Of a DNA stretch of 64,000 bases, positions 27,953-51,166 are shown one piece after another. A program made the position numbers and the translations under genes. This stretch comes from Phycisphaerae bacterium RAS1 (lineage in GTDB: Bacteria > Planctomycetota > Phycisphaerae > UBA1845 > Fen-1342), in contig SMLU01000001.1 in NCBI GenBank assembly GCA_007859745.1, positions 806,001 through 870,000 on the forward strand, read 5' to 3'. A model generated the notes under the pieces. That model searched no databases. It had not been told where the DNA came from and saw only the letters and a list, made by a program, of their open reading frames with translations. The number at the start of each line of letters is the position of its first letter. Position 1 is the stretch's first letter.

Positions 27953-28045
27953 GTCAATTCAGCATTGAGGGAGCACTAGCCGCGTTCCGGCGTCGGTGCA
28001 CTGTGCGCGGGCGCCGGTGTGTGTCCCAATCACGGTTGGACTTTA

Positions 28046-29185
28046 ATGACCCGTGTTCTCGTATCGTTGAGCGCCGTCGGACTCGCACTGGCGGCTTGCA
28101 CCCTTCTGATTCAGCGCGACGCGGCCCCCGCCGTGGCGGCCGCGCCGCTGGGCGCGGCGGCGCGGCCTGCCGCGGCGGCTTCCGGCGACGGCCAGCCGGC
28201 GGCCGCGACCGGGGCCTACCGCGGCCTGGCGATTCAACTCCGCACCGGCTTCGGCCCGGTGGAGCGCTACGGCCCGCTGTTGCGCGAGATCGCCGACCTG
28301 GGCGCCGACACCGTGATGCTCTGCCCCTGCGGCTTCATGGAGCACGCCCGCTCGCAGGGCATCTTCGTCGACGTTCGCAAGACGCCCTCGCCGCCCGACC
28401 TGGTGGCGCTCACCAAGGAAGCTCGCAGACTCGGCTTGCGGCCCATCATCATGCCCATGCTGCTGCTCACGAATCCACGCGGCAGCGAGTGGCGCGGCGT
28501 CATCGAACCGCCCGAGTGGAACGACTGGTGGCGGCAATATCGCGAGTTCATTATTCACTTCGCCGACATCGCCCGCGACGGCGGCGCCGAGGCGCTCATG
28601 GTCGGGTCGGAACTCGTGACAACCGAGAAGTACACCGCGGAGTGGATTCGGGTCATCGAAGCCGCCCGCGAGCACTATCCCGGCGGCAAGCTCGGCTACT
28701 CGGCCAACTGGGATCACTACAAGCCGGTGCAGTTCTGGGACAAGCTCGACCTGATCGGCATGACCAGCTACCACACGCTCGCGGACAAGAAGAATCCCAG
28801 CGTTGATGAGATCGCGGCCAAGTGGAAGCCGATCTGCGACGAAGTCGCCGCGTGGCAGAAGAAAATCGGCCGGCCGATCCTGATGACGGAGGTCGGCTGG
28901 TGCAGCCAGGAGGGGGCGGCGATGGCGCCGTGGAACTACTACGCTAACCAGGTCGCGACGCCGGCCGGCCACGAAGAGCAGCGACGGCTGTACGAGGCCT
29001 TCATTCGCGCCTGGAACGGCAGCGGCGCGCTGGGTGGCGTGATCTGGTGGGAGTGGCAGGAAACCGGCGGCGAGAAGGACTACGGATATACGCCGAAGGG
29101 CAAGCCGGCTGAGACCGTTTTGCGCCGCTGGTTCAGCGAGTCGCGAACCTCGCCGGCCGACGCCGCAACTAACGGCGGTCGCTGA
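28046..29185 (+). CDS. GH113-like glycoside hydrolase
   Basis: 379 residues from ATG 28046 (MTRVLVSLSAVGLALAACTL, a lipoprotein-like signal). An Ala-rich spacer follows to about residue 55. The rest is a TIM barrel with clan GH-A features: RGLAIQLRTGFGP at the start, MVGSELVTTEKY (acid/base Glu), DLIGMTSYHTLADKK, LMTEVGWCSQEGA (nucleophile Glu) and GVIWWEWQETGGEKDYGYTP. This spacing is closest to GH113 beta-mannanase-like proteins. It is probably exported to degrade or remodel polysaccharide. A GH5- or GH53-like assignment is possible. Confidence 0.8.
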   Translation: MTRVLVSLSAVGLALAACTLLIQRDAAPAVAAAPLGAAARPAAAASGDGQPAAATGAYRGLAIQLRTGFGPVERYGPLLREIADLGADTVMLCPCGFMEHARSQGIFVDVRKTPSPPDLVALTKEARRLGLRPIIMPMLLLTNPRGSEWRGVIEPPEWNDWWRQYREFIIHFADIARDGGAEALMVGSELVTTEKYTAEWIRVIEAAREHYPGGKLGYSANWDHYKPVQFWDKLDLIGMTSYHTLADKKNPSVDEIAAKWKPICDEVAAWQKKIGRPILMTEVGWCSQEGAAMAPWNYYANQVATPAGHEEQRRLYEAFIRAWNGSGALGGVIWWEWQETGGEKDYGYTPKGKPAETVLRRWFSESRTSPADAATNGGR

Positions 29186-29201
29186 GGACCACGCATCGCC
29201 G

Positions 29202-29828
29202 TCACGTCGGCGACCCCAGTCCGCCGGTCTCGCCCAGCCAGGCGACCACGCGATCGGCGGCGAGGTCGAGATCATCGTCCGTCACGTCTATTTCTAACGA
29301 CCGCAACGTGGATCGCCGGACGGCCTCTCGAAACTGCCCCTGCTCGACGATGAAACGTGAGAGGTCGTCGTATTGCCGCGGATTCCCGGAAACGGCCAGC
29401 CGCGCCGTCCGGGCGGCGGCGAAGGAGCCCGGGTCGCGGGTGCACAGAATGATGCGGAAGTCGATCGCGGCCAGACGCGCTTCCAATTGGAAAAATTCGT
29501 AGTGTGCACCGCGGGCGGCCATCTGATGGACCTGGGTCGAGATGTGAAAACGGTCCACGATCCACGAGTAATAGCGCAGGAGCTCGAAGAGCCGCACCCA
29601 CGTGTTGTATGTCTCCAGCGCCCGGGACTCCTCCTCGGGGTTGAAATTGATGAGTCCGCGCCCCCACGGCGTATTTGTGAACCCGCACCACTCACCTGAA
29701 ACAACGGGTGAGTGGTAGCGGTATTTGCGCGGGCCGACGAAGCCGGGGTGCTCGTTAAGTCGGAATGCAAGCTCGGTCTTATGCGTGAGGCGCGTGCCTT
29801 CGAGAATGACGTGCGGACAGAGTTTCAT
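29202..29828 (-). CDS. P-loop kinase-like protein with degenerate Walker A
   Basis: 208 residues. The N-terminus MKLCPHVILEGTRLTHKTEL sits where a dTMP-kinase-type protein would have ILEGxDGxGKTT. K-T remain, but the second glycine is His. A later block IILCTRDPGSFAAARTARL resembles the lid/DRX region of nucleoside kinases. No signal peptide or membrane segment. It is convergent with the GH113-like gene, 16 bp away. Nucleotide binding is a weak inference; I do not recognise the family. Confidence 0.65.
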   Translation of the reverse strand: MKLCPHVILEGTRLTHKTELAFRLNEHPGFVGPRKYRYHSPVVSGEWCGFTNTPWGRGLINFNPEEESRALETYNTWVRLFELLRYYSWIVDRFHISTQVHQMAARGAHYEFFQLEARLAAIDFRIILCTRDPGSFAAARTARLAVSGNPRQYDDLSRFIVEQGQFREAVRRSTLRSLEIDVTDDDLDLAADRVVAWLGETGGLGSPT

Positions 29829-31673: not shown

Positions 31674-31738
31674 CGGGTGGAACGGGCATCTTGCCCGTTC
31701 CTTCAAACGCGGGGACGGGCGGGACGCGCGTCCCACCC
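31674..31738. repeat. 'gggtggaacgggcatcttgcccgttcc' hairpin repeat
   Basis: A gaacgggcatcttgcccgttc hairpin plus an inverted gggacgcgcgtcccaccc end. It is related to 62203, which carries both stems, and to 22065. It lies between convergent genes. Confidence 0.8.
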
Positions 31739-31771
31739 AAAGGCGCTCACGCTCAGACGCACGCACGCCCC

Positions 31772-33277
31772 TTAGCGCAGCTTCAGACGCCAGAAGGCAA
31801 ACCAGCTCATCTTCAGCAAGAGCCATCCGTGCCGGAACCGGCTGATGTTGGTGGTGCCGTACGTGCGGGCCTTGTAGCGGACGGGGATCTCGACGATTTT
31901 CAGGTTGGCCTTGGCCGCGCCCAGCAGCAGGTCGAAATCGCCGAACGGGTCGAAGTCGCCGAAGAAGTGCCGGTTGGCCGCGATCGTGTCGTAGTTCTTC
32001 TTCGACAGCACCTTGGTGCCGCACAGCGTGTCGCGCAGCGGCTGGCTGAGCAGCCAGGTGAACACCATGCTGAAGAAGCGGTTGCCCAGCTTGTTCAGGA
32101 AGCGCATCGCCTGGTCTTCCATGGGATAAACCAGCCGCGTGCCGTTGATGAACTCGCCGCGGCCGCTGGTGATGGCTTCGACGAAGCGCGGCAAGAGCTC
32201 GGGCGGGACGGTCAGGTCGGCGTCGAGGATCATCAGGATGTCGCCCGTTGCGGCGGCGAAGCCCTTGCGGACGGCGTCGCCTTTGCCGCGGCCGTCGCCC
32301 TGCGGAATGAGCTTCATGTTGCGCTGCGGTCGGGCGGCGATCTGCGCTTCGATTTCATCCGCCGTGCCGTCCGTGCTGTTCCCGTCCACGAAGATGATCT
32401 CGGTTCCGGCGCCCATTTCGGGCGTGCGCTGGATGGCGGCTTCGATGTTGCCGCGCTCATTGCGGGTCGGGATGACGACGCTGACGCGCGGCGCCCGCAA
32501 CTCGGGCGGCGCGGCCACGGCGCGGGCCACCAGCACCTGGACCAGGCCGAGATGGCCAAAGGGCCAGAAGCGGGCCACGAAGCGATTCATGAGCCCGGCC
32601 AGCAGCGGAATCGGCGCCGGCATGAGCACCTCGCCGGATTTTCGGATGATCTCCAGCCCGGCCAGATAGGCCAGGTTGCTCAGATCGTGCAGCGAGAGCC
32701 AGTTCTGCTCGCCGGTGCGCTTGCGCAAGCCCACGCGCGTCGCCAGCTTGAGCAGCGGCTCCCACAGCGCGTTGTGGTAGGCGATGACGATTCGCGTGTC
32801 GGCGCGACAGGCGTGCCCGACCCGTGCGAACAAACTCTGCACGTCCTCGGCGGTGGCCAGCGCGGTCGAGACGATGATGAAATCGAATCGCCGCGGACCC
32901 AGATCGAACCGATCCAGCGGCGCGTGAACAAAGGTCAGGCCCGGATGACGCGCCTGGGCCTCGCGGATGACCGCCTCGTCGGCGTCTACGCCGACGCCTT
33001 CGCCGGGCTTGAGCGAGGCGAGCAGGTCGCCGGCGTCACGGACGCCAACCTCGAGGATGCGCCCGCCCGGCGGAATGTGGAGCTCGAAGAGACGAAACAA
33101 CTGCCGCGTGTAGTAGCTCAATCGCCGCGGGCGACCGCCTGCGCCGCCCGGTGCGCCGCCGCCCTCGGCCGTCGTGGCGGCTGGGCCGCGGTCAGTGCGG
33201 GCGGGTTCGATCAAGTCCATAAGCGCTCGCGCAGATCCGGAAAGTCCAACGGGCGACGGGTACGCGTCGTGGGTCAT
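31772..33277 (-). CDS. Methyltransferase-like / GT2 glycosyltransferase fusion
   Basis: 501 residues from ATG 33277; a GTG five codons upstream is possible. Residues about 50-250 look like a SAM-dependent methyltransferase: GGRILEVGVRDAGDLLASL is motif I, followed by VGVDADEAVIREA, FDFIIVSTAL, and the H/N-rich region AYHNALWEPLLKLATR. Residues about 262-501 are a GT-A family 2 domain: SVVIPTRNERGNIEAAIQ, EIIFVDGNSTDGTADEI, DILMILDADLTVPPE (DxD), and NGTRLVYPMEDQAMRFLN, as in dolichyl-phosphate-sugar synthases. Likely role: adding a sugar to a lipid carrier or surface glycan, with a linked methyl transfer. The start is 56 bp from aroB's stop on the same strand. Confidence 0.85.
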   Translation of the reverse strand: MTHDAYPSPVGLSGSARALMDLIEPARTDRGPAATTAEGGGAPGGAGGRPRRLSYYTRQLFRLFELHIPPGGRILEVGVRDAGDLLASLKPGEGVGVDADEAVIREAQARHPGLTFVHAPLDRFDLGPRRFDFIIVSTALATAEDVQSLFARVGHACRADTRIVIAYHNALWEPLLKLATRVGLRKRTGEQNWLSLHDLSNLAYLAGLEIIRKSGEVLMPAPIPLLAGLMNRFVARFWPFGHLGLVQVLVARAVAAPPELRAPRVSVVIPTRNERGNIEAAIQRTPEMGAGTEIIFVDGNSTDGTADEIEAQIAARPQRNMKLIPQGDGRGKGDAVRKGFAAATGDILMILDADLTVPPELLPRFVEAITSGRGEFINGTRLVYPMEDQAMRFLNKLGNRFFSMVFTWLLSQPLRDTLCGTKVLSKKNYDTIAANRHFFGDFDPFGDFDLLLGAAKANLKIVEIPVRYKARTYGTTNISRFRHGWLLLKMSWFAFWRLKLR

Positions 33278-33333
33278 TGGGGGGACCGCCACCCGGCCGG
33301 AACATTCTATCGGCTGTCATCAGTTCTGAGCAT

Positions 33334-34407
33334 TCAGGGAGCCAAGGCGACAAGCGCCGCCGCGATTTCCGCGTCCGTTGCGTCGGTGACGCGCTGCACC
33401 GCGCCGATTTCGCGCAGCAGCATGAAATGAATCGCGCCGCCGCGGTTCTTCTTGTCCATGCGGCAGGCGTCGATGACCGCAGCCGGGTCCAGCGGGCGCG
33501 GCAGGCGCGTCGGAAGCTGAAGCGCGGCAAGCGCATCACGGATGCGCTCGGCCGAGCCGGGCGAGAGCAGGCCCCGCGCCTGGGCCATGGCGTTCTCCGC
33601 GATCATGCCCAGCGCCACGCACTCGCCGTGCCGCAGCTCGTAGCCGAGCAGGTGTTCGAACGCGTGGCCGAGCGTGTGGCCGTGGTTCAGAATCGCACGC
33701 AAATCGGCCTCGCGCTCGTCGGCCGCCACGACCGCGGCTTTAATCGCGACGTTTCGCGCCAGGAGCGGCTCGATCACCGCGGGCTCGCGGGCGACGATTC
33801 GCGCGGCGTTTTTTTCGTGAAAGGTCAGCAGATCCGGGTCGCGGATGGCGGCGTGCTTGATGCTCTCTGCCAGGCCGGCGGAGAAGTCACGCGCGGGCAG
33901 CGTCGCCAGGAATTCGCTGTCGATAATGACGCCCAGCGGCTGATGAAACGCGCCGACGAGGTTCTTGCCGGCGGGCAGGTTCACACCCGTCTTGCCGCCG
34001 ACGGAGGCGTCGACCGCGGCTTCAGTCGTCGTCGGAACCTGAATGTACGGCACGCCGCGCAGCCAGGTGGCGGCGGCGAATCCGGTCAGGTCGCCGACGA
34101 CGCCGCCGCCCAGGCTCAGCAGGACGTCGCTGCGCTCGATACGAAAGGCGGCGAGCTGGTCATAGAGCTTCGCCAGTCGCGCGATGGACTTGCTTTGCTC
34201 TCCCGGCGGAACGCGGATGGACAGTGCGTTGCCCGGTAAGACTTCGAGCAACGATTGCAGATGGAGAGCGGCGACGACGTCGTCCGTGATGACGACGACG
34301 CGCCCGCCGCCTGCCGGCGCGAGAAGCGCGCGAAGCTCGAATCGGGCGCGCGGGCCGATCCAGACGTCGTAGCGCTTTCCAGGAACCGCAACCGGGACGC
34401 AAGTCAT
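33334..34407 (-). CDS. aroB: 3-Dehydroquinate synthase
   Basis: 357 residues from ATG 34407 (MTCVPVAVPGKRYDVWIG), with CTGGAG six bases upstream. An in-frame extension to 34494 lacks such a site. It is the second step of the shikimate pathway, using NAD+ and a divalent metal. Motifs: PPGEQSKS, LSLGGGVVGDLTGFAAATWL, PTTTEAAVDASVGGKTGVNL, GLAESIKHAAI (metal Glu), and NHGHTLGHAFEH (metal His). It precedes the methyltransferase-GT2 fusion and is divergent from folC. Confidence 0.97.
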   Translation of the reverse strand: MTCVPVAVPGKRYDVWIGPRARFELRALLAPAGGGRVVVITDDVVAALHLQSLLEVLPGNALSIRVPPGEQSKSIARLAKLYDQLAAFRIERSDVLLSLGGGVVGDLTGFAAATWLRGVPYIQVPTTTEAAVDASVGGKTGVNLPAGKNLVGAFHQPLGVIIDSEFLATLPARDFSAGLAESIKHAAIRDPDLLTFHEKNAARIVAREPAVIEPLLARNVAIKAAVVAADEREADLRAILNHGHTLGHAFEHLLGYELRHGECVALGMIAENAMAQARGLLSPGSAERIRDALAALQLPTRLPRPLDPAAVIDACRMDKKNRGGAIHFMLLREIGAVQRVTDATDAEIAAALVALAP

Positions 34408-34633
34408 TCGAACTCCAGAGATCGCGGCGAACAACAACCAGCTCCGCGGCGTAGCAATTCCGTCGGCGAGCCAGCGGCGCGCGGGCACAGGCAAATTCTG
34501 TGCCTGCGGAATTCGGAGCGATCCGGTCTGAATTCGTCAACGGGCCAAGCTCGTCCGCGTAATCGGGTCCGAATCGGCGACAAACTACTACCTATTGGTG
34601 TCATCGTCACGATCTATACGACAGGTAGCATTG

Positions 34634-36114: not shown

Positions 36115-36753
36115 ATGGGCGCCGCACCGGACGGCCTGGTCGATGACGCCGCCCGGGCGCGGTTGCAGCACTTCGCCGAACTCCTGCTCGACATCAATCG
36201 GCACCTGAATCTAACGGGGGCCCGCGATGCGGACGCGCTCTGGCGGGCGCACATCGCCGACAGCCTGGCGCTTTTCCCTTTGATTCACGAGGACCATCGG
36301 CTGCTGGACCTGGGCAGCGGCGGGGGTTTGCCGGGATTGGTGCTGGCGTGCACGCGGCCGAACCTGCACGTGACGCTGCTGGACGCTCGGCGAAAGAAAG
36401 TGGCGGCGCTCGAGCAGTTGATCGCCGCTCTCGCGCTGCCCAACGCGGCGGCCGTCTGGGGCCGGGCGGAGAAACTCGCGGAAGATGCGGCGCTGCGCGG
36501 GGTTTTCGACGTCGTAACCGCGCGGGCCGTCGCGGCGTTGCCGGTGTTGATCGAATGGTCCGCGCCATTCGTCCGGCCGGGCGGCGTGTGCTGGTTTTTC
36601 AAATCCACCGCTGCGCTGGAGCACGAAGTCGCCGCCGCGGCGACCCTGGCGGCGCGCCGCCGCATGGCCGCGCTGCCTGTGCATGAGTACCTTCTGAAAG
36701 GCGACGCGATTCCGCGTGTCTTGCTGGGGTACCGGAAACTCGCGTCGTCCTGA
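36115..36753 (+). CDS. rsmG: 16S rRNA (guanine-N7) methyltransferase RsmG
   Basis: 212 residues, standard for RsmG/GidB. It methylates N7 of G527 (E. coli numbering) in 16S rRNA using SAM. Motifs: FAELLLDINRHLNLTGARDA, HIADSLALFPL, LLDLGSGGGLPGLVLACTRP (motif I), VTLLDARRKKVAALEQLI, and DVVTARAVAALPVLIEW. It follows folC by two bases. The end is followed by the inverted repeat at 36783. Confidence 0.96.
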   Translation: MGAAPDGLVDDAARARLQHFAELLLDINRHLNLTGARDADALWRAHIADSLALFPLIHEDHRLLDLGSGGGLPGLVLACTRPNLHVTLLDARRKKVAALEQLIAALALPNAAAVWGRAEKLAEDAALRGVFDVVTARAVAALPVLIEWSAPFVRPGGVCWFFKSTAALEHEVAAAATLAARRRMAALPVHEYLLKGDAIPRVLLGYRKLASS

Positions 36754-36934: not shown

Positions 36935-37145
36935 TCAGATATCCGGGCGGAGTCGGGCGACGAGCGGATGCGAAGCGCACCATGGGGCTGCCTGTGGAGT
37001 GCGCGTTCAGTCCGCTCGCCGCCGAATCCAGCGCGGCATCATCTCGATCTGTGTTCGATCGGGGGGAAGCGAGATCACGTGAATGCGGCCGTCGCAGGCG
37101 CACTCGCCTGTGCACCGTGCCGGCCGAGCCGAAAGGAGGCTGGTC

Positions 37146-38828
37146 ATGCGTATCGCATCGCACCTGCTGCGGGCGCCCCTCTTGCTTGGGCTCAGCCTGC
37201 TGTTGCCAACTCCGGCGCGAACGGAGTGGATCAAGCCGCTTGACCCGCCCGCCGCTCCGCCGGACGTCGACAAACTCCCGCACGGCGACTGCGGGCGGTT
37301 GACCTGTTTCATCGCGACGGCGGCCAACATGCTGGCCGGCGCCGGCTACGGCAATGGCGCCACCGTGCAGGCGCGGGCTGACGCGATCTACCTGCAGTTG
37401 CGATCGCACTTCGGGACGTTCGAGTGAGGGTGTCTCGACAGAGCCATCAGTTGGTGGCTTCAGTCCGAGCACAATACCTGGCCGGAAAACAAGTATGACG
37501 TGGTCACGATGTACGGCACGCGCGACCAGCTCACTCCGTGGGCCAACCCGGACGGCGCGATGTTCATCGGCAACCACCTGCGGGCGGGCGACTTTGTCGG
37601 GATCACGCTCTCGTGGCCGCTCGCTACGCCGAACAACGTCGTACACGTCGTGACGGTTTGGGGCGACAGCGGCGACGCTGACCCGCTGACTAACAACCCC
37701 GAGTTTTTCATCATGACCGACTCCGACCGGGAGGATCCCGACGCGACGCCCGATCTCCAGACCTACAACTATGACAACTTCTACTACCCGCCGGAGCCGA
37801 ACCGCGGACCGGGCTGGTACTTCGACTACACCTACCCGTCGGCATGGGGACACCCGTACATCATAAACGCCGTCACGCTTTCGCAGGTCGCGGACAACGA
37901 TCCGCAGGGCAACCGACGTGTCGTCCGCGCGACCGGCTCCTACCTGGCGACCAACGACCTGACGAGCGCGACCGGATTGCACTACGACGTGGGAACGGAC
38001 ACCGAGATTCTGTACTACGACACGCGCATCATGCCGCCCGTCTCCTCGCCGCCCACGATCGTCGAAATCGACGACCCGCCGACCTGGCTCACGGTCGATT
38101 GGACTCTGGATTTTCCGGCGCCGCCGGGCTACAGCGTGTTCATCACGACCGACTTCATCCTGCCGGCGTGGAACGCGGTGTGGTATGGCAACGTCCATTT
38201 CACGCCCGACGGCCTGATGAGTGTCCAGCCCGCGTTCAACTGGCAAGTCGACACGCCTGATCTGCCGCCGCCATTGGATGCCGCAGCTTGCGGCGGATTC
38301 GTGGTGGCCGCGTTCAAGGTGTACGCAGACCAGGCCGGTACGCAGGAGCTGTGCCAATACAGGCTTGAGCATGAGTACGCCTTCGATCAAGACCCCGAGT
38401 CGCACACTTTCACGCTGACGTCGCGGGAGAGCGCGACGACGCTTTACATCGGCGACCTGCACTTCGGCCACAGCCACGGCCTGCTGGACGAAAACGAACT
38501 GTGGGGATTCGAGAACTGGCTTACGTCACCGCAAGGCATTGTGGAGCTGCCGCCGCAGGAGCAGACCGTGACACTGCTGGACTGGAACACGCTGCTGCCC
38601 TATCCGCCCTATATCTGCGTCGGCCCCGGCGCCGGCTCGGCCGATCTGAACTGCGACGGCGTAGCGAACATCCTGGACATCAACCCGTTCATTCTCGCGC
38701 TGTCCAGTCCGGCGATGTACCAGCAGCAGTACCCGCTGTGCGAAATCACGCACGGCGACATGAATGGCGACGGAGAGGTGAACATCCTGGACATCAATGG
38801 ATTCGTCCAGAGGCTGACGGGAGGGTAG
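37146..38828 (+). pseudogene. Papain-like cysteine-peptidase/dockerin gene split by one in-frame TGA
   Basis: ATG 37146 has a strong AAAGGAGG site. A signal peptide (SHLLRAPLLLGLSLLLPTPART) leads to GDCGRLTCFIATAANMLAGAGYG, a papain/IdeS-type Cys-helix. Codon 94 is TGA (37425-37427), yet the same frame continues without a break to 38828: GCLDRAISWWLQSEHNTWPE, then NNVVHVVTVWGDSGD (likely catalytic His), a beta-rich region, and dockerin repeats DLNCDGVANILDINPF and DMNGDGEVNILDINGF. A TGG-to-TGA change (Trp) fits the context. Nonsense mutation, sequencing error or read-through are the options. Promoter and start site are intact, so decay would be recent. A shorter protein could restart at GTG 37500, but would lack Cys and signal. 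Confidence 0.8.
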
Positions 38829-38927: not shown

Positions 38928-39275
38928 GGCGACGGGGATCGAAGCCGGAGTTGCGGGGCGCCGAAAAAGCCATCCGCGCTTGGGGGAAGCAGGAGATGGT
39001 CTATGCACACCTCATTGCCAGAGAGTGACCAGGCGCCGTGCAAATCCGCCGACACCCGTTGTGTCCGAACCCGTCGCGCCAAGCGACGGGTTGACGTCCA
39101 TGCGACACGCGGGCGTCTGCTCCTGGTTGGCTTGCTTCTCTGTTTCGCCGCCGCGGCGCCCGCCGACATCCTCAACGTTCCCGCGGACTACCCGACGATC
39201 CAGGCAGCGGTCGACGCGGCCGCGCCGGGGGATCACGTCGTCCTTGCCCCGGGCGTCTACACCGGCCCAGGCAAC
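38928..39275. repeat. Direct repeat copy 1: leader and N-terminus of the beta-helix gene
   Basis: About 348 bp, starting ggcgacggggatcgaagccg, includes 75 bp upstream of ATG 39003, the start, the half REP element, the signal peptide and the first beta-helix turn (LNVPADYPTIQAAVDAA). It is almost identical to 43803-44148, with small indels and substitutions. Confidence 0.9.
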
Positions 39276-49023: not shown

Positions 49024-49846
49024 GGGATCGACGTTGGCGGCCGGCTCCCGCGCCGGCCGCAGACCTCGTGGTGAAGAGGGCGTTTTCGCGCAAAGAATGT
49101 CGCTCCGCAAGCAGCGGCGCCACAAACCGCCGATTCCACTCGTATCCCAGAATCCCCAGGTGAAATCCCATGTGTCCGGCGGCGCGCCACTCCTCTGACC
49201 AGCCGACCTGCACCAGCTTCTCGCGCAGCACGCGGTCCGAAACGCATTTTTCAGCCTGAAAGCTCTCTTTCCCGGCCGACGGGACGTATTTTCGATCCAT
49301 TGTTCCGAAGACCGTGGTGCCCGCCCCCAGAATCCAGGCGTCGTTGCCCGAGTAGAAGTTGAACAGGCGCCCATCAACGTGCCGCAGCGCGGTCGTCAGG
49401 TCGTAGTCCGGGCTCAGCGCCGGCTGCACCAGCACGATATGCCGCAAGCGCACGTCCTCCGGCAGCGACTCGGCCACCATCACCGCGACGCCGCCGCCGC
49501 CGGAGTAGCCCAGCAGATCGACGGCGGAGCGCGGATGTTCCTGCCGATAAGCGGCGATCTGCGCCGCGATGCGGGCCGCGTCGGCGCGATTCTGCTCATA
49601 GCTCACCAGGTTCACAATGGAGCCGAGCGGTTTCCACCACTCGTGGATCCGCACCGCCTGCGATGCGCCAGCGTCGCGCAGTGCACGGTATGGCCCCTCC
49701 AGCGACCACGCCCCGCCCTCCACGCCGGGGAACATCCAGATCAACCCGTCGTCAAGCTCCTGCCGCATCGGCTGCGGTGGCTGGAAGCAGCCGCAAAGCG
49801 CCAAGAGCGCCGTCGCGGCGGCAAACACCCGAATACGTGTACGCAT
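48992..49846 (-). CDS. Alpha/beta-hydrolase lipoprotein
   Basis: 284 residues from ATG 49846, chosen because GAGG is six bases upstream. MRTRIRVFAAATALLALCGC is a clear lipoprotein signal. The nucleophile elbow is VDLLGYSGGGGVAVMVAESL (Ser), the acid is probably in NFYSGNDAWILG, and the His in AGHMGFHLGILG. The preceding FPGVEGGAWSLEGPYRALRD fits an oxyanion region. Probably an envelope esterase/lipase; the substrate is unknown. The start is eight bases from the end of the upstream dehydrogenase gene, so the two are co-transcribed. The 3' end overlaps the convergent dockerin gene by 32 bp. Confidence 0.85.
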   Translation of the reverse strand: MRTRIRVFAAATALLALCGCFQPPQPMRQELDDGLIWMFPGVEGGAWSLEGPYRALRDAGASQAVRIHEWWKPLGSIVNLVSYEQNRADAARIAAQIAAYRQEHPRSAVDLLGYSGGGGVAVMVAESLPEDVRLRHIVLVQPALSPDYDLTTALRHVDGRLFNFYSGNDAWILGAGTTVFGTMDRKYVPSAGKESFQAEKCVSDRVLREKLVQVGWSEEWRAAGHMGFHLGILGYEWNRRFVAPLLAERHSLRENALFTTRSAAGAGAGRQRRSLTRRSAPRTG

Positions 49847-49854
49847 ACGGAACC

Positions 49855-51090
49855 TCATCTCGCTGCGCGGCATCGAGTGCGCCGCGCGCCGGCCGCCGCA
49901 AAGGTCAGCAGCATTCCAGCCATCGTTCCCGCGGCGCCGCAGCCGCACTGCGACGGCAGTTGAAACGGGCTCAGCGAGTCGTCGTCGGGCGCGCCGTCCG
50001 CGGCGTCCGGATCTTCGGGAGCGTAGCGGACGCGTTTGATCTGCCCGCCGAACAACTCGCAATAGTAGAGCGCGCCGTCGGTGCCCTGGGCGAGGTCCAC
50101 CGGGCCCAGTTCGCCCTGGACGAACGTGCTGTGGCTGACAACGCGGTCGCCATCGAGCACGGTGCGATACAGACGGTTGAGTTGGTAATCGAGGTGGAAC
50201 AGGTTCGAGTGATACTCGGCGGGAAAGGCCGTGCTCGTGTAGACGAGCGCGCCGACGGGTGCGGAACCCTCCTCCTGGTACGTGTAGATCGGCGCGAGAA
50301 ACTCGTCCTGCCCGGCCGGCGGCGCACCCTCGACGTTCGGCCAGCCGCCGTTATCACCTGCGCTGACGAGGTTGATCTCCTCGCGGCGCTGCGCGCCTTG
50401 GGAACCGACGTCGAGCACGAACAGCCGCCCGTCCGCACCGAAGCAGAACCGGAAGGGGTTGCGAAAGCCCAGGGCGAAGATCGCGCGAGGTTCATCGGTC
50501 GGCGTGCGAAAAGGATTGTCGTCCGGCGTCGAGCCGTCGGCGTTGATGCGGCAGATCTTCCCGGCCAGCGTGCTCATGTCCTGCGCGTTGTCGGGCACGG
50601 CGTTGTCGCCGATCGAGAAATACAGTTTGCCGTCGCCGCCGAAGTCCAGGCCGCCGCCGTTGTGATTGACGCCGCGCGTCGGCAGGTGATCGCGGATGAT
50701 GGTCTGCTGCGTACCGACGCCGCCGGACTCGGTCAGGCGGATGATCTGCTGCTCCTCGGCGGTGATCGTGATGAAGACGTAGACGAAGTGATTGGTGGCG
50801 AAGTCCGGATCGACCGCCAGGCCCAGCAGGCCGCATTCCGAAAGCGTAAAGGGCTGAAAGCGTGCGAAGGGCGGCTGCTGAACGACGCCGTCGACGATGA
50901 TCCACATCGCGCCGTCCTTCTCGCCGACCAGCAGCCGGCCGTCGGGCAGGCTCTCGATCGCCGTCGGCAACGCCAGGCCGGTGGCGTACGTTTCGACCAC
51001 GAATCCGGATTCGAGCGCCTCGGCGGCGAGTGCCGGCCGCGCCGGCGAGATGGCGAGCGCGGCGCAGATGACGATGGGACGATGCTTCAT
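49855..51090 (-). CDS. PQQ-dependent sugar dehydrogenase-like protein with C-terminal sorting-type tail
   Basis: 411 residues. Signal peptide: RPIVICAALAISPARPALAA. The soluble aldose-sugar-dehydrogenase propeller is recognisable: ALPTAIESLPDGRLLVGEKD, CGLLGLAVDPDFATNHFVYV, RGVNHNGGGLDFGGDGKLYF, LAGKICRINADGST, IFALGFRNPFRFCFG, and LFVLDVGSQGAQRREEINLV. The end reads SQCGCGAAGTMAGMLLTFAA followed by GARRTRCRAAR: cysteines, one membrane helix and an Arg cluster, as in MYXO-CTERM-type surface-sorting tags. It is a paralogue of the dockerin-tagged enzyme at 20630. It is followed by the hydrolase at 48992. Confidence 0.87.
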   Translation of the reverse strand: MKHRPIVICAALAISPARPALAAEALESGFVVETYATGLALPTAIESLPDGRLLVGEKDGAMWIIVDGVVQQPPFARFQPFTLSECGLLGLAVDPDFATNHFVYVFITITAEEQQIIRLTESGGVGTQQTIIRDHLPTRGVNHNGGGLDFGGDGKLYFSIGDNAVPDNAQDMSTLAGKICRINADGSTPDDNPFRTPTDEPRAIFALGFRNPFRFCFGADGRLFVLDVGSQGAQRREEINLVSAGDNGGWPNVEGAPPAGQDEFLAPIYTYQEEGSAPVGALVYTSTAFPAEYHSNLFHLDYQLNRLYRTVLDGDRVVSHSTFVQGELGPVDLAQGTDGALYYCELFGGQIKRVRYAPEDPDAADGAPDDDSLSPFQLPSQCGCGAAGTMAGMLLTFAAAGARRTRCRAAR

Positions 51091-51166
51091 GGATGAACCT
51101 CCGGCCCGCGTGATTTCGGCCGCCGGACCGCGGCGGCGCGGCTGCGGCAGATTGTAGCGGCCCGGT

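What the first reader, a model, noticed from the sequence alone, without database searches (positions are those of the whole stretch)
37425..37427. Single in-frame TGA splits an otherwise intact cysteine-peptidase-like/dockerin gene
The same frame is open from ATG 37146 to 38828 except for this codon. Promoter, ribosome-binding site, signal peptide, Cys-helix, His motif and dockerin are all in place. The context FE*GCLDRAISWWLQ suggests Trp (TGG to TGA). A small hairpin agcca/tggct begins 16 nt after the TGA, so recoding should be considered, though UGA is a normal stop in many genes here.
Basis: partly seen in the sequence, partly recalled or inferred. Interest (0 to 1): 0.55.

Follow-up and report, generated by a model that had tools for sequence, protein, structure and literature searches.

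The report
New selenoprotein, secreted cysteine-peptidase-like enzyme
The stop codon inside this gene is very probably read as the rare selenium amino acid selenocysteine, which would make it a new kind of selenium protein: a secreted protease-like enzyme of little-known bacteria.

Summary
The frame is open from ATG 37146 to TAG 38826-38828 except TGA 37425-37427. In 114 genomes of the same order, four others hold a full homologue of this region (39-50% identity); all four carry one in-frame TGA at the same codon. The five form one clade (95/96). Coding continues past the TGA under purifying selection. A hairpin 21 nt after the TGA fits the published bacterial SECIS model in all five, and synonymous codon conservation peaks there. 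The genome has SelA, SelB, tRNA-Sec and a SelD that itself contains an in-frame TGA. Best reading: UGA = selenocysteine (Sec).

In 17 close homologues without TGA the aligned residue is Gly (14), Ser (2) or Thr (1), not Trp or Cys. The fold is papain-like, nearest TDE0362, IdeS and staphopain. By motif spacing Sec takes the papain Gly65 position beside the catalytic Cys; a Se-S redox lock is proposed, inference only. A 2026 table of 119 prokaryotic selenoprotein families lists no peptidase.

The parts
37132..37139 (+). Shine-Dalgarno-like aaaggagg, 6 nt before the start codon
   Evidence: sequence
37146..38828 (+). Whole gene: 560 residues with Sec at residue 94, then TAG
   Evidence: homologues
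37146..37223 (+). Signal-peptide-like N-terminus (boundary approximate, by eye)
   Evidence: sequence; similar starts in the four TGA homologues
37305..37307 (+). Catalytic Cys54 codon (TGT)
   Evidence: invariant in alignments of 16 and 17 rows
37425..37427 (+). UGA read as selenocysteine, residue 94
   Evidence: same column in 5 of 5 TGA members; clade 95/96
37430..37472 (+). SECIS-like element (whole predicted fold); the lower stem is not conserved in the homologues
   Evidence: -21.0 kcal/mol, z -3.6; lower stem 66.7% of cells paired
37441..37460 (+). Upper stem with loop AGUU (37449-37452), 21 nt after the UGA
   Evidence: inner 6 pairs formed in 30 of 30 cells of 5 sequences
37644..37646 (+). 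Catalytic His167 codon
   Evidence: invariant
37719..37721 (+). Catalytic-type Asp192 codon (DSD motif)
   Evidence: invariant
38634..38825 (+). Dockerin-like C-terminus (residues 497-560)
   Evidence: Pfam Dockerin_1 E 7.9e-4, 20.0 bits under cut-off 22.9; 50-67% identical to many other C-termini of this genome

Best explanation
UGA 37425-37427 is decoded as selenocysteine: SelB with Sec-tRNA-Sec acts on the hairpin right after the codon and one full-length exported protein of 560 residues is made. Shown by computation: the conserved UGA, coding constraint after it, a SECIS-compatible hairpin with synonymous constraint, the Sec machinery in the genome. Inferred: that insertion really happens. 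The product has a papain-fold, IdeS/staphopain-like catalytic domain with Cys54, His167 and Asp192, further beta-rich parts and a dockerin-like tail (fold and conservation shown; activity and export inferred). By motif and spacing Sec94 stands where papain has Gly65, in the S1 wall beside the catalytic Cys. Proposed role, inference only and about 0.35 taken alone: Sec94 and Cys54 form a reversible Se-S bond that holds the peptidase off when oxidised and frees it when reduced. The confidence given is for Sec insertion.
For: Same in-frame TGA in 5 of 5 TGA-region homologues of the order at 39-50% identity, one clade 95/96 in 97% of 200 bootstraps. dN below dS after the TGA in 4 of 4 window comparisons, e.g. 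0.52 against 1.22 with L049. The 24 residues between the TGA and the first in-frame start of the window hold family-invariant residues such as W103, W104, L105. Hairpin -21.0 kcal/mol, z -3.6; loop AGUU at 21 nt in all five, within the published model: loop 3-9 nt, stem 4-16 bp, G in the first two loop positions, spacing 16-37 nt, energy at most -7.5 (PMC13188914, Fig. 2 legend). Identical codons at identical residues: 44 of 61 near the TGA, 653 of 1443 elsewhere; non-TGA members 142 of 345 and 5010 of 11127; best 12 of 225 windows all start -5 to +8 around the TGA. tRNA-Sec, SelB 322.2 bits, SelA 533.5 bits, SelD with its own in-frame TGA at CAGUAGK. SelB over cut-off in 5 of 5 TGA genomes and 8 of 15 others. 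Fold: TDE0362 Z 15.9, IdeS 15.4, staphopain 12.9.
Against: No experiment. Close non-TGA homologues have G, S or T, never Cys, at the column, unlike nearly all known selenoproteins. The hairpin shows no two-sided covariation, its lower stem is not kept, half of the upper stem is fixed by two Trp codons, and the same upper stem occurs without TGA in L055/L081 and L082. The five genomes are relatives, so the TGA is one event kept, not five. SelA was not found in G090 (selB there runs off the contig end) and tRNA-Sec not in G049.
Confidence: 0.87

Rival explanations
1. Sec is inserted, but it does not lock the catalytic Cys: it acts alone as a peroxide-reducing, metal-binding or substrate-contacting residue in the cleft.
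For: The residues on either side of Sec vary (E or G before, G, E or H after), and no fixed partner motif such as CxxU is present. A Cys two residues on (UGC) is only in the window's protein.
Against: Cys54 is the only Cys kept in all five and, if the papain mapping holds, lies across the S1 wall from Sec.
Confidence: 0.45
2. Programmed readthrough without selenium: a near-cognate tRNA reads the UGA at some rate, giving a short and a long product.
For: UGA is the leakiest stop (general knowledge); a stem after a stop can favour readthrough.
Against: All five TGA genomes have SelB; the codon is TGA in 5 of 5; the loop and spacing fit the SECIS model. The 93-residue short product would end before the His and Asp.
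Confidence: 0.06
3. Two genes: the UGA is a true stop and the rest is made by re-initiation, as a split enzyme.
For: In-frame starts exist downstream (GTG 37500 in the window; an ATG only 5 codons after the TGA in L051).
Against: In the other four the first start lies 25-38 codons after the TGA, beyond conserved residues (WWL, N, Y); no clear ribosome-binding site before GTG 37500 by eye.
Confidence: 0.03
4. Pseudogene, assembly error, or a Trp codon turned into a stop.
Against: Same TGA in four other assemblies; no other stop or frameshift; constraint after the TGA; the aligned residue is not Trp in any of 25 rows without TGA.
Confidence: 0.01

Closest known systems
Bacterial selenoproteins decoded by SelB and a coding-region SECIS (SelD and others)
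   Same: In-frame UGA, stem-loop directly after it with G in the loop, SelA/SelB/tRNA-Sec/SelD in the genome; own SelD carries an in-frame TGA
   Different: Close relatives without Sec have Gly, Ser or Thr, not Cys, at the site; peptidase fold rather than a redox or metal enzyme; not in the table of 119 families
IdeS/Mac-1 (C66), TDE0362 and staphopain, papain-fold cysteine peptidases
   Same: Fold (Z 15.9, 15.4, 12.9), Cys/His/Asp order; weak profile match to Mac-1 2au1, E 0.003
   Different: 16-17% identity in the fold alignments to the first two groups; no Pfam match for the catalytic part at E up to 1 in the window protein; carries a dockerin-like or IPTL-type tail, and a Sec
FmdB-type selenoprotein with Gly homologues in planctomycetes (PMC4807772, passages)
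   Same: A Sec protein for which Gly-containing homologues are reported in planctomycetes
   Different: An unrelated cytoplasmic enzyme

Membership tests
Bacterial selenoprotein | In-frame UGA conserved in homologues, with coding constraint on both sides | tested here: met
Bacterial selenoprotein | Stem-loop after the UGA that fits the bacterial SECIS model | tested here: met
   against the model; specificity modest, no covariation
Bacterial selenoprotein | SelA, SelB, tRNA-Sec and SelD in the same genome | tested here: met
   window's genome. Of the other four TGA genomes: SelB 4, SelD 4, SelA 3, tRNA-Sec 3
Bacterial selenoprotein | Selenium found in the protein | not testable with these tools
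   needs expression and mass spectrometry
Bacterial selenoprotein | Usual but not defining: Cys in place of Sec in homologues | tested here: not met
   17 close homologues: G 14, S 2, T 1; 8 remote: S, L, L, P, P, A, Q, C
Papain-fold cysteine peptidase | Fold | tested here: met
   AF2 model pLDDT 80.2, Z up to 15.9 over about 200 residues
Papain-fold cysteine peptidase | Catalytic Cys and His, with Asp | tested here: met
   Cys54, His167, Asp192 invariant in 16 and 17 rows; activity not tested
Peptidase family C66 (IdeS/Mac-1) proper | Clear sequence membership | tested here: inconclusive
   2au1 E 0.003 over 69 profile positions; no Pfam hit
Type I dockerin | Pfam Dockerin_1 over its cut-off | tested here: inconclusive
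   20.0 bits against 22.9

The most novel reading that the evidence does not exclude
Selenocysteine entered this protein without a cysteine forerunner: in one clade a glycine of the substrate cleft (papain Gly65 position) of a secreted cysteine peptidase became Sec, setting a selenol against the catalytic thiol as a reversible Se-S redox lock. A SECIS-like stem already present in Gly-coding relatives would have eased the step. Detection methods that demand Sec/Cys pairs cannot see such proteins, so more may exist.
Probability: 0.35. Interest if true: 0.85.

Novelty: new variant of a known kind. Interest (0 to 1): 0.72.

Why it matters
If true it adds an exported peptidase-fold family to bacterial selenoproteins, and it departs from the working rule that Sec has Cys counterparts. 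The deep-Sep authors write that all known selenoproteins now seem to have Cys homologues and that their homology filter may drop ones without (PMC12013277, passages). It also offers a case for how Sec arises: the nearest non-TGA group has GGA at this codon, and a SECIS-like upper stem exists in some Gly-coding relatives. A redox-locked secreted protease would be a new use of Sec.

Tried and rejected
Trp mutated to stop, assembly error, pseudogene: rejected. A changed genetic code: rejected, TGA ends 14 of 30 long ORFs. Split gene with re-initiation: disfavoured. Peptidase_C1 (PF00112) in the genome: 0 matches. Homologues in phages, plasmids and viral contigs: no match. First genome-contig scan with the single protein confirmed none of 7 stretches; the alignment gave 17 loci. 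A phylum search of 392 genomes gave no further TGA member. Covariation in the hairpin: looked for, not found. Literature searches that gave no peptidase-type selenoprotein of this kind: in a library that lacks most subscription papers and preprints. A 'trypsin-like serine protease' candidate stands in a 2022 table (PMC9312934, passages); the words protease and peptidase do not occur in the main text of the 2026 review.

What I saw of papers: PMC13188914 passages, abstract with outline, section 7 parts 1-2 of 3 (which hold the whole table), section 8; PMC12013277, PMC1088965, PMC4807772, PMC9312934, PMC7658999 passages only. Recalled, from no call: papain numbering Cys25 and Gly65.

Full report
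What is there. Searches confirm one frame from ATG 37146 to TAG 38826-38828, interrupted only by TGA 37425-37427. The genome (G000, 5.50 Mb, 7 contigs, 99.18% complete) gave one place for residues 119-485 of this protein and one for residues 1-490.

The TGA is conserved. A search of 114 genomes of the order with the protein minus its dockerin part matched 7. Besides the window's own, four carry exactly one in-frame TGA (G026 50%, G047 44%, G090 43%, G049 39% identity). G022 matches only in the C-terminal part (residues 429-487), and G103 is a distant relative without TGA. Reading the frames puts the TGA at the same codon in all five. In 397 genomes of the class 22 matched; no further TGA member was among them. 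In 392 genomes of the phylum 5 matched, and only the window's genome had the TGA. Of 17 loci from 84,980 species genomes, 4 have the TGA, the same four. A tree of 25 rows puts the five in one clade (95/96; 97% of 200 bootstraps); its nearest group, at moderate support (88/86), is two Verrucomicrobia rows with GGA here. L095 has a very long branch (2.55). So the TGA is one event that was kept through deep divergence.

The part after the TGA is translated in frame. dN is below dS after the TGA in 4 of 4 window comparisons (0.52 against 1.22 with L049), though dS is near saturation. The 24 residues between the TGA and the window's first in-frame start (GTG 37500) contain residues invariant in 17 rows (W103, W104, L105, S107, N110, N115, Y117). 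Against this, L051 has an ATG five codons after the TGA.

The hairpin. The 51 nt from the TGA fold at -21.0 kcal/mol, z -3.6. All five share the upper stem with loop AGUU, 21 nt after the TGA, and meet the published bacterial SECIS model (PMC13188914). Against over-reading: 1.5% of 1500 sampled coding positions equal the window on stem and energy together, and 21% of 15879 have a 6-bp stem. In the upper stem 30 of 30 cells pair, against 17-83% when slid, but 4 of 6 pairs never vary and 2 vary on one side only; the lower stem keeps 66.7% of cells. Gly-coding L055/L081 and L082 have the same upper stem. The stronger signal is synonymous: among the five, codons at identical residues are identical in 44 of 61 comparisons at codons +1 to +14 and in 653 of 1443 elsewhere; ten non-TGA members show 142 of 345 and 5010 of 11127. 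Fisher p is 3.7e-5, but the comparisons are not independent. The best 12 of 225 overlapping windows all start between -5 and +8. Seven non-TGA members with near-duplicates dropped give 59 of 159 near and 1897 of 4819 far. The loop's Ser codon is AGT in all five, a codon used for 4.8% of 652 Ser in window genes.

The machinery. tRNA-Sec (67.8 bits, anticodon tca), SelB (322.2 bits), SelA (533.5 bits, C1:796643-798127, about 8 kb before the window), SelD (379.9 bits). SelD of this genome, G026 and G090 has an in-frame TGA at the Sec site (CAGUAGK), a positive control; in G047 and G049 that site reads Cys (GLGCACK). Over 20 genomes SelB passes its cut-off in 13: 5 of 5 TGA genomes, 8 of 15 others; SelA in 11: 4 of 5 and 7 of 15. 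G090 lacks SelA in the assembly; its selB runs off the contig end on the side where selA follows selB in G047 and G049. tRNA-Sec was found in 6 of 8 genomes searched, not in G049 or G378.

What residue is replaced. In 17 close non-TGA homologues the column holds G 14, S 2, T 1; in 8 remote ones S, L, L, P, P, A, Q, C. The C is in L068, one of the two weakest class matches (E 1.9e-5), where the alignment is doubtful. Trp never stands there. PMC12013277 says all known selenoproteins now seem to have Cys homologues. PMC4807772 mentions Gly homologues of a planctomycete FmdB selenoprotein, so Gly opposite Sec has been noted elsewhere.

What the protein is. The catalytic part of the window protein matches no Pfam family at E up to 1 and no NCBIfam family at E up to 0.1. 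The AF2 model (17 sequences, pLDDT 80.2, pTM 0.75) matches TDE0362, IdeS/Mac-1 and staphopain (Z 15.9, 15.4, 12.9); the best Foldseek E-value is 9.7e-4. A profile search of PDB sequences gives Mac-1 2au1 at E 0.003. Cys54, His167 and Asp192 are invariant. The Cys-to-column distance is 40 residues in 13 of 17 rows, the window included, as from papain Cys25 to Gly65 (recalled). PMC7658999 (passages) describes the S1 subsite as formed by Gly24, Cys26 and Gly65 in bromelain, with Asn at 64 in papain, Gly66 holding the P2 backbone and an aromatic residue next; the family motif N-G-G-W fits. So Sec94 probably lines S1 beside the catalytic Cys; this mapping rests on motif and spacing, not on a residue-level structural alignment. 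Cys54 is the only Cys kept in all five, the natural partner for a Se-S bond. That last step is inference.

Verdict. Selenocysteine insertion is the best reading (0.87). The family is not in the table of 119 prokaryotic selenoprotein families of the 2026 review. Selenium content, protease activity, export and redox role are untested.

Noticed in passing
G000 whole genome: Very many proteins end in a dockerin-like tail like this one: the list was full at 150 matched places, one of them the gene itself, so at least about 149 others.
   Followed up: no
L055/L081 and L082, at the aligned codon: Gly-coding homologues (GGC) carry the same SECIS-like upper stem GCCATC-AGTT-GGTGGC without a TGA; G402, the genome of L055, has SelA, SelB and tRNA-Sec. 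A stem that came before the UGA, or a lost Sec, is possible.
   Followed up: partly
G000:C2:159537-160460, L112: SelD of the window's genome is a Sec-type SelD (in-frame TGA), as in G026 and G090; in G047 and G049 the site reads Cys.
   Followed up: yes
L094 and other TGA members, C-terminus: Three TGA members end in an IPxVSxWG-hydrophobic-RRR tail instead of a dockerin; one of 17 rows matched IPTL-CTERM (E 5.8e-5), a sorting signal.
   Followed up: partly
L058-L061: Class members with a long insert (roughly 350 residues) after about residue 358 of the query.
   Followed up: no
L084-L086, L088-L092, L096: Non-TGA homologues sit in records labelled Aegiribacteria, Bacteroidota, Verrucomicrobia, Acidobacteria, Chloroflexi and Desulfotomaculum, which suggests transfer between phyla or mislabelled bins.
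   Followed up: no
G000:C1:875029-875823: 5 kb past the window end, a frame matches residues 308-560 (31%) with dockerin, without the catalytic domain.
   Followed up: no
window 28043-29275 (-), 31691-33430 (+), 49663-51096 (+): Long ORFs without a Pfam match at 1e-5. Neighbours of the gene are a Mur-ligase-type (folC-like) protein at 34595, gidB at 36115 and a beta-helix protein at 39003.
   Followed up: no
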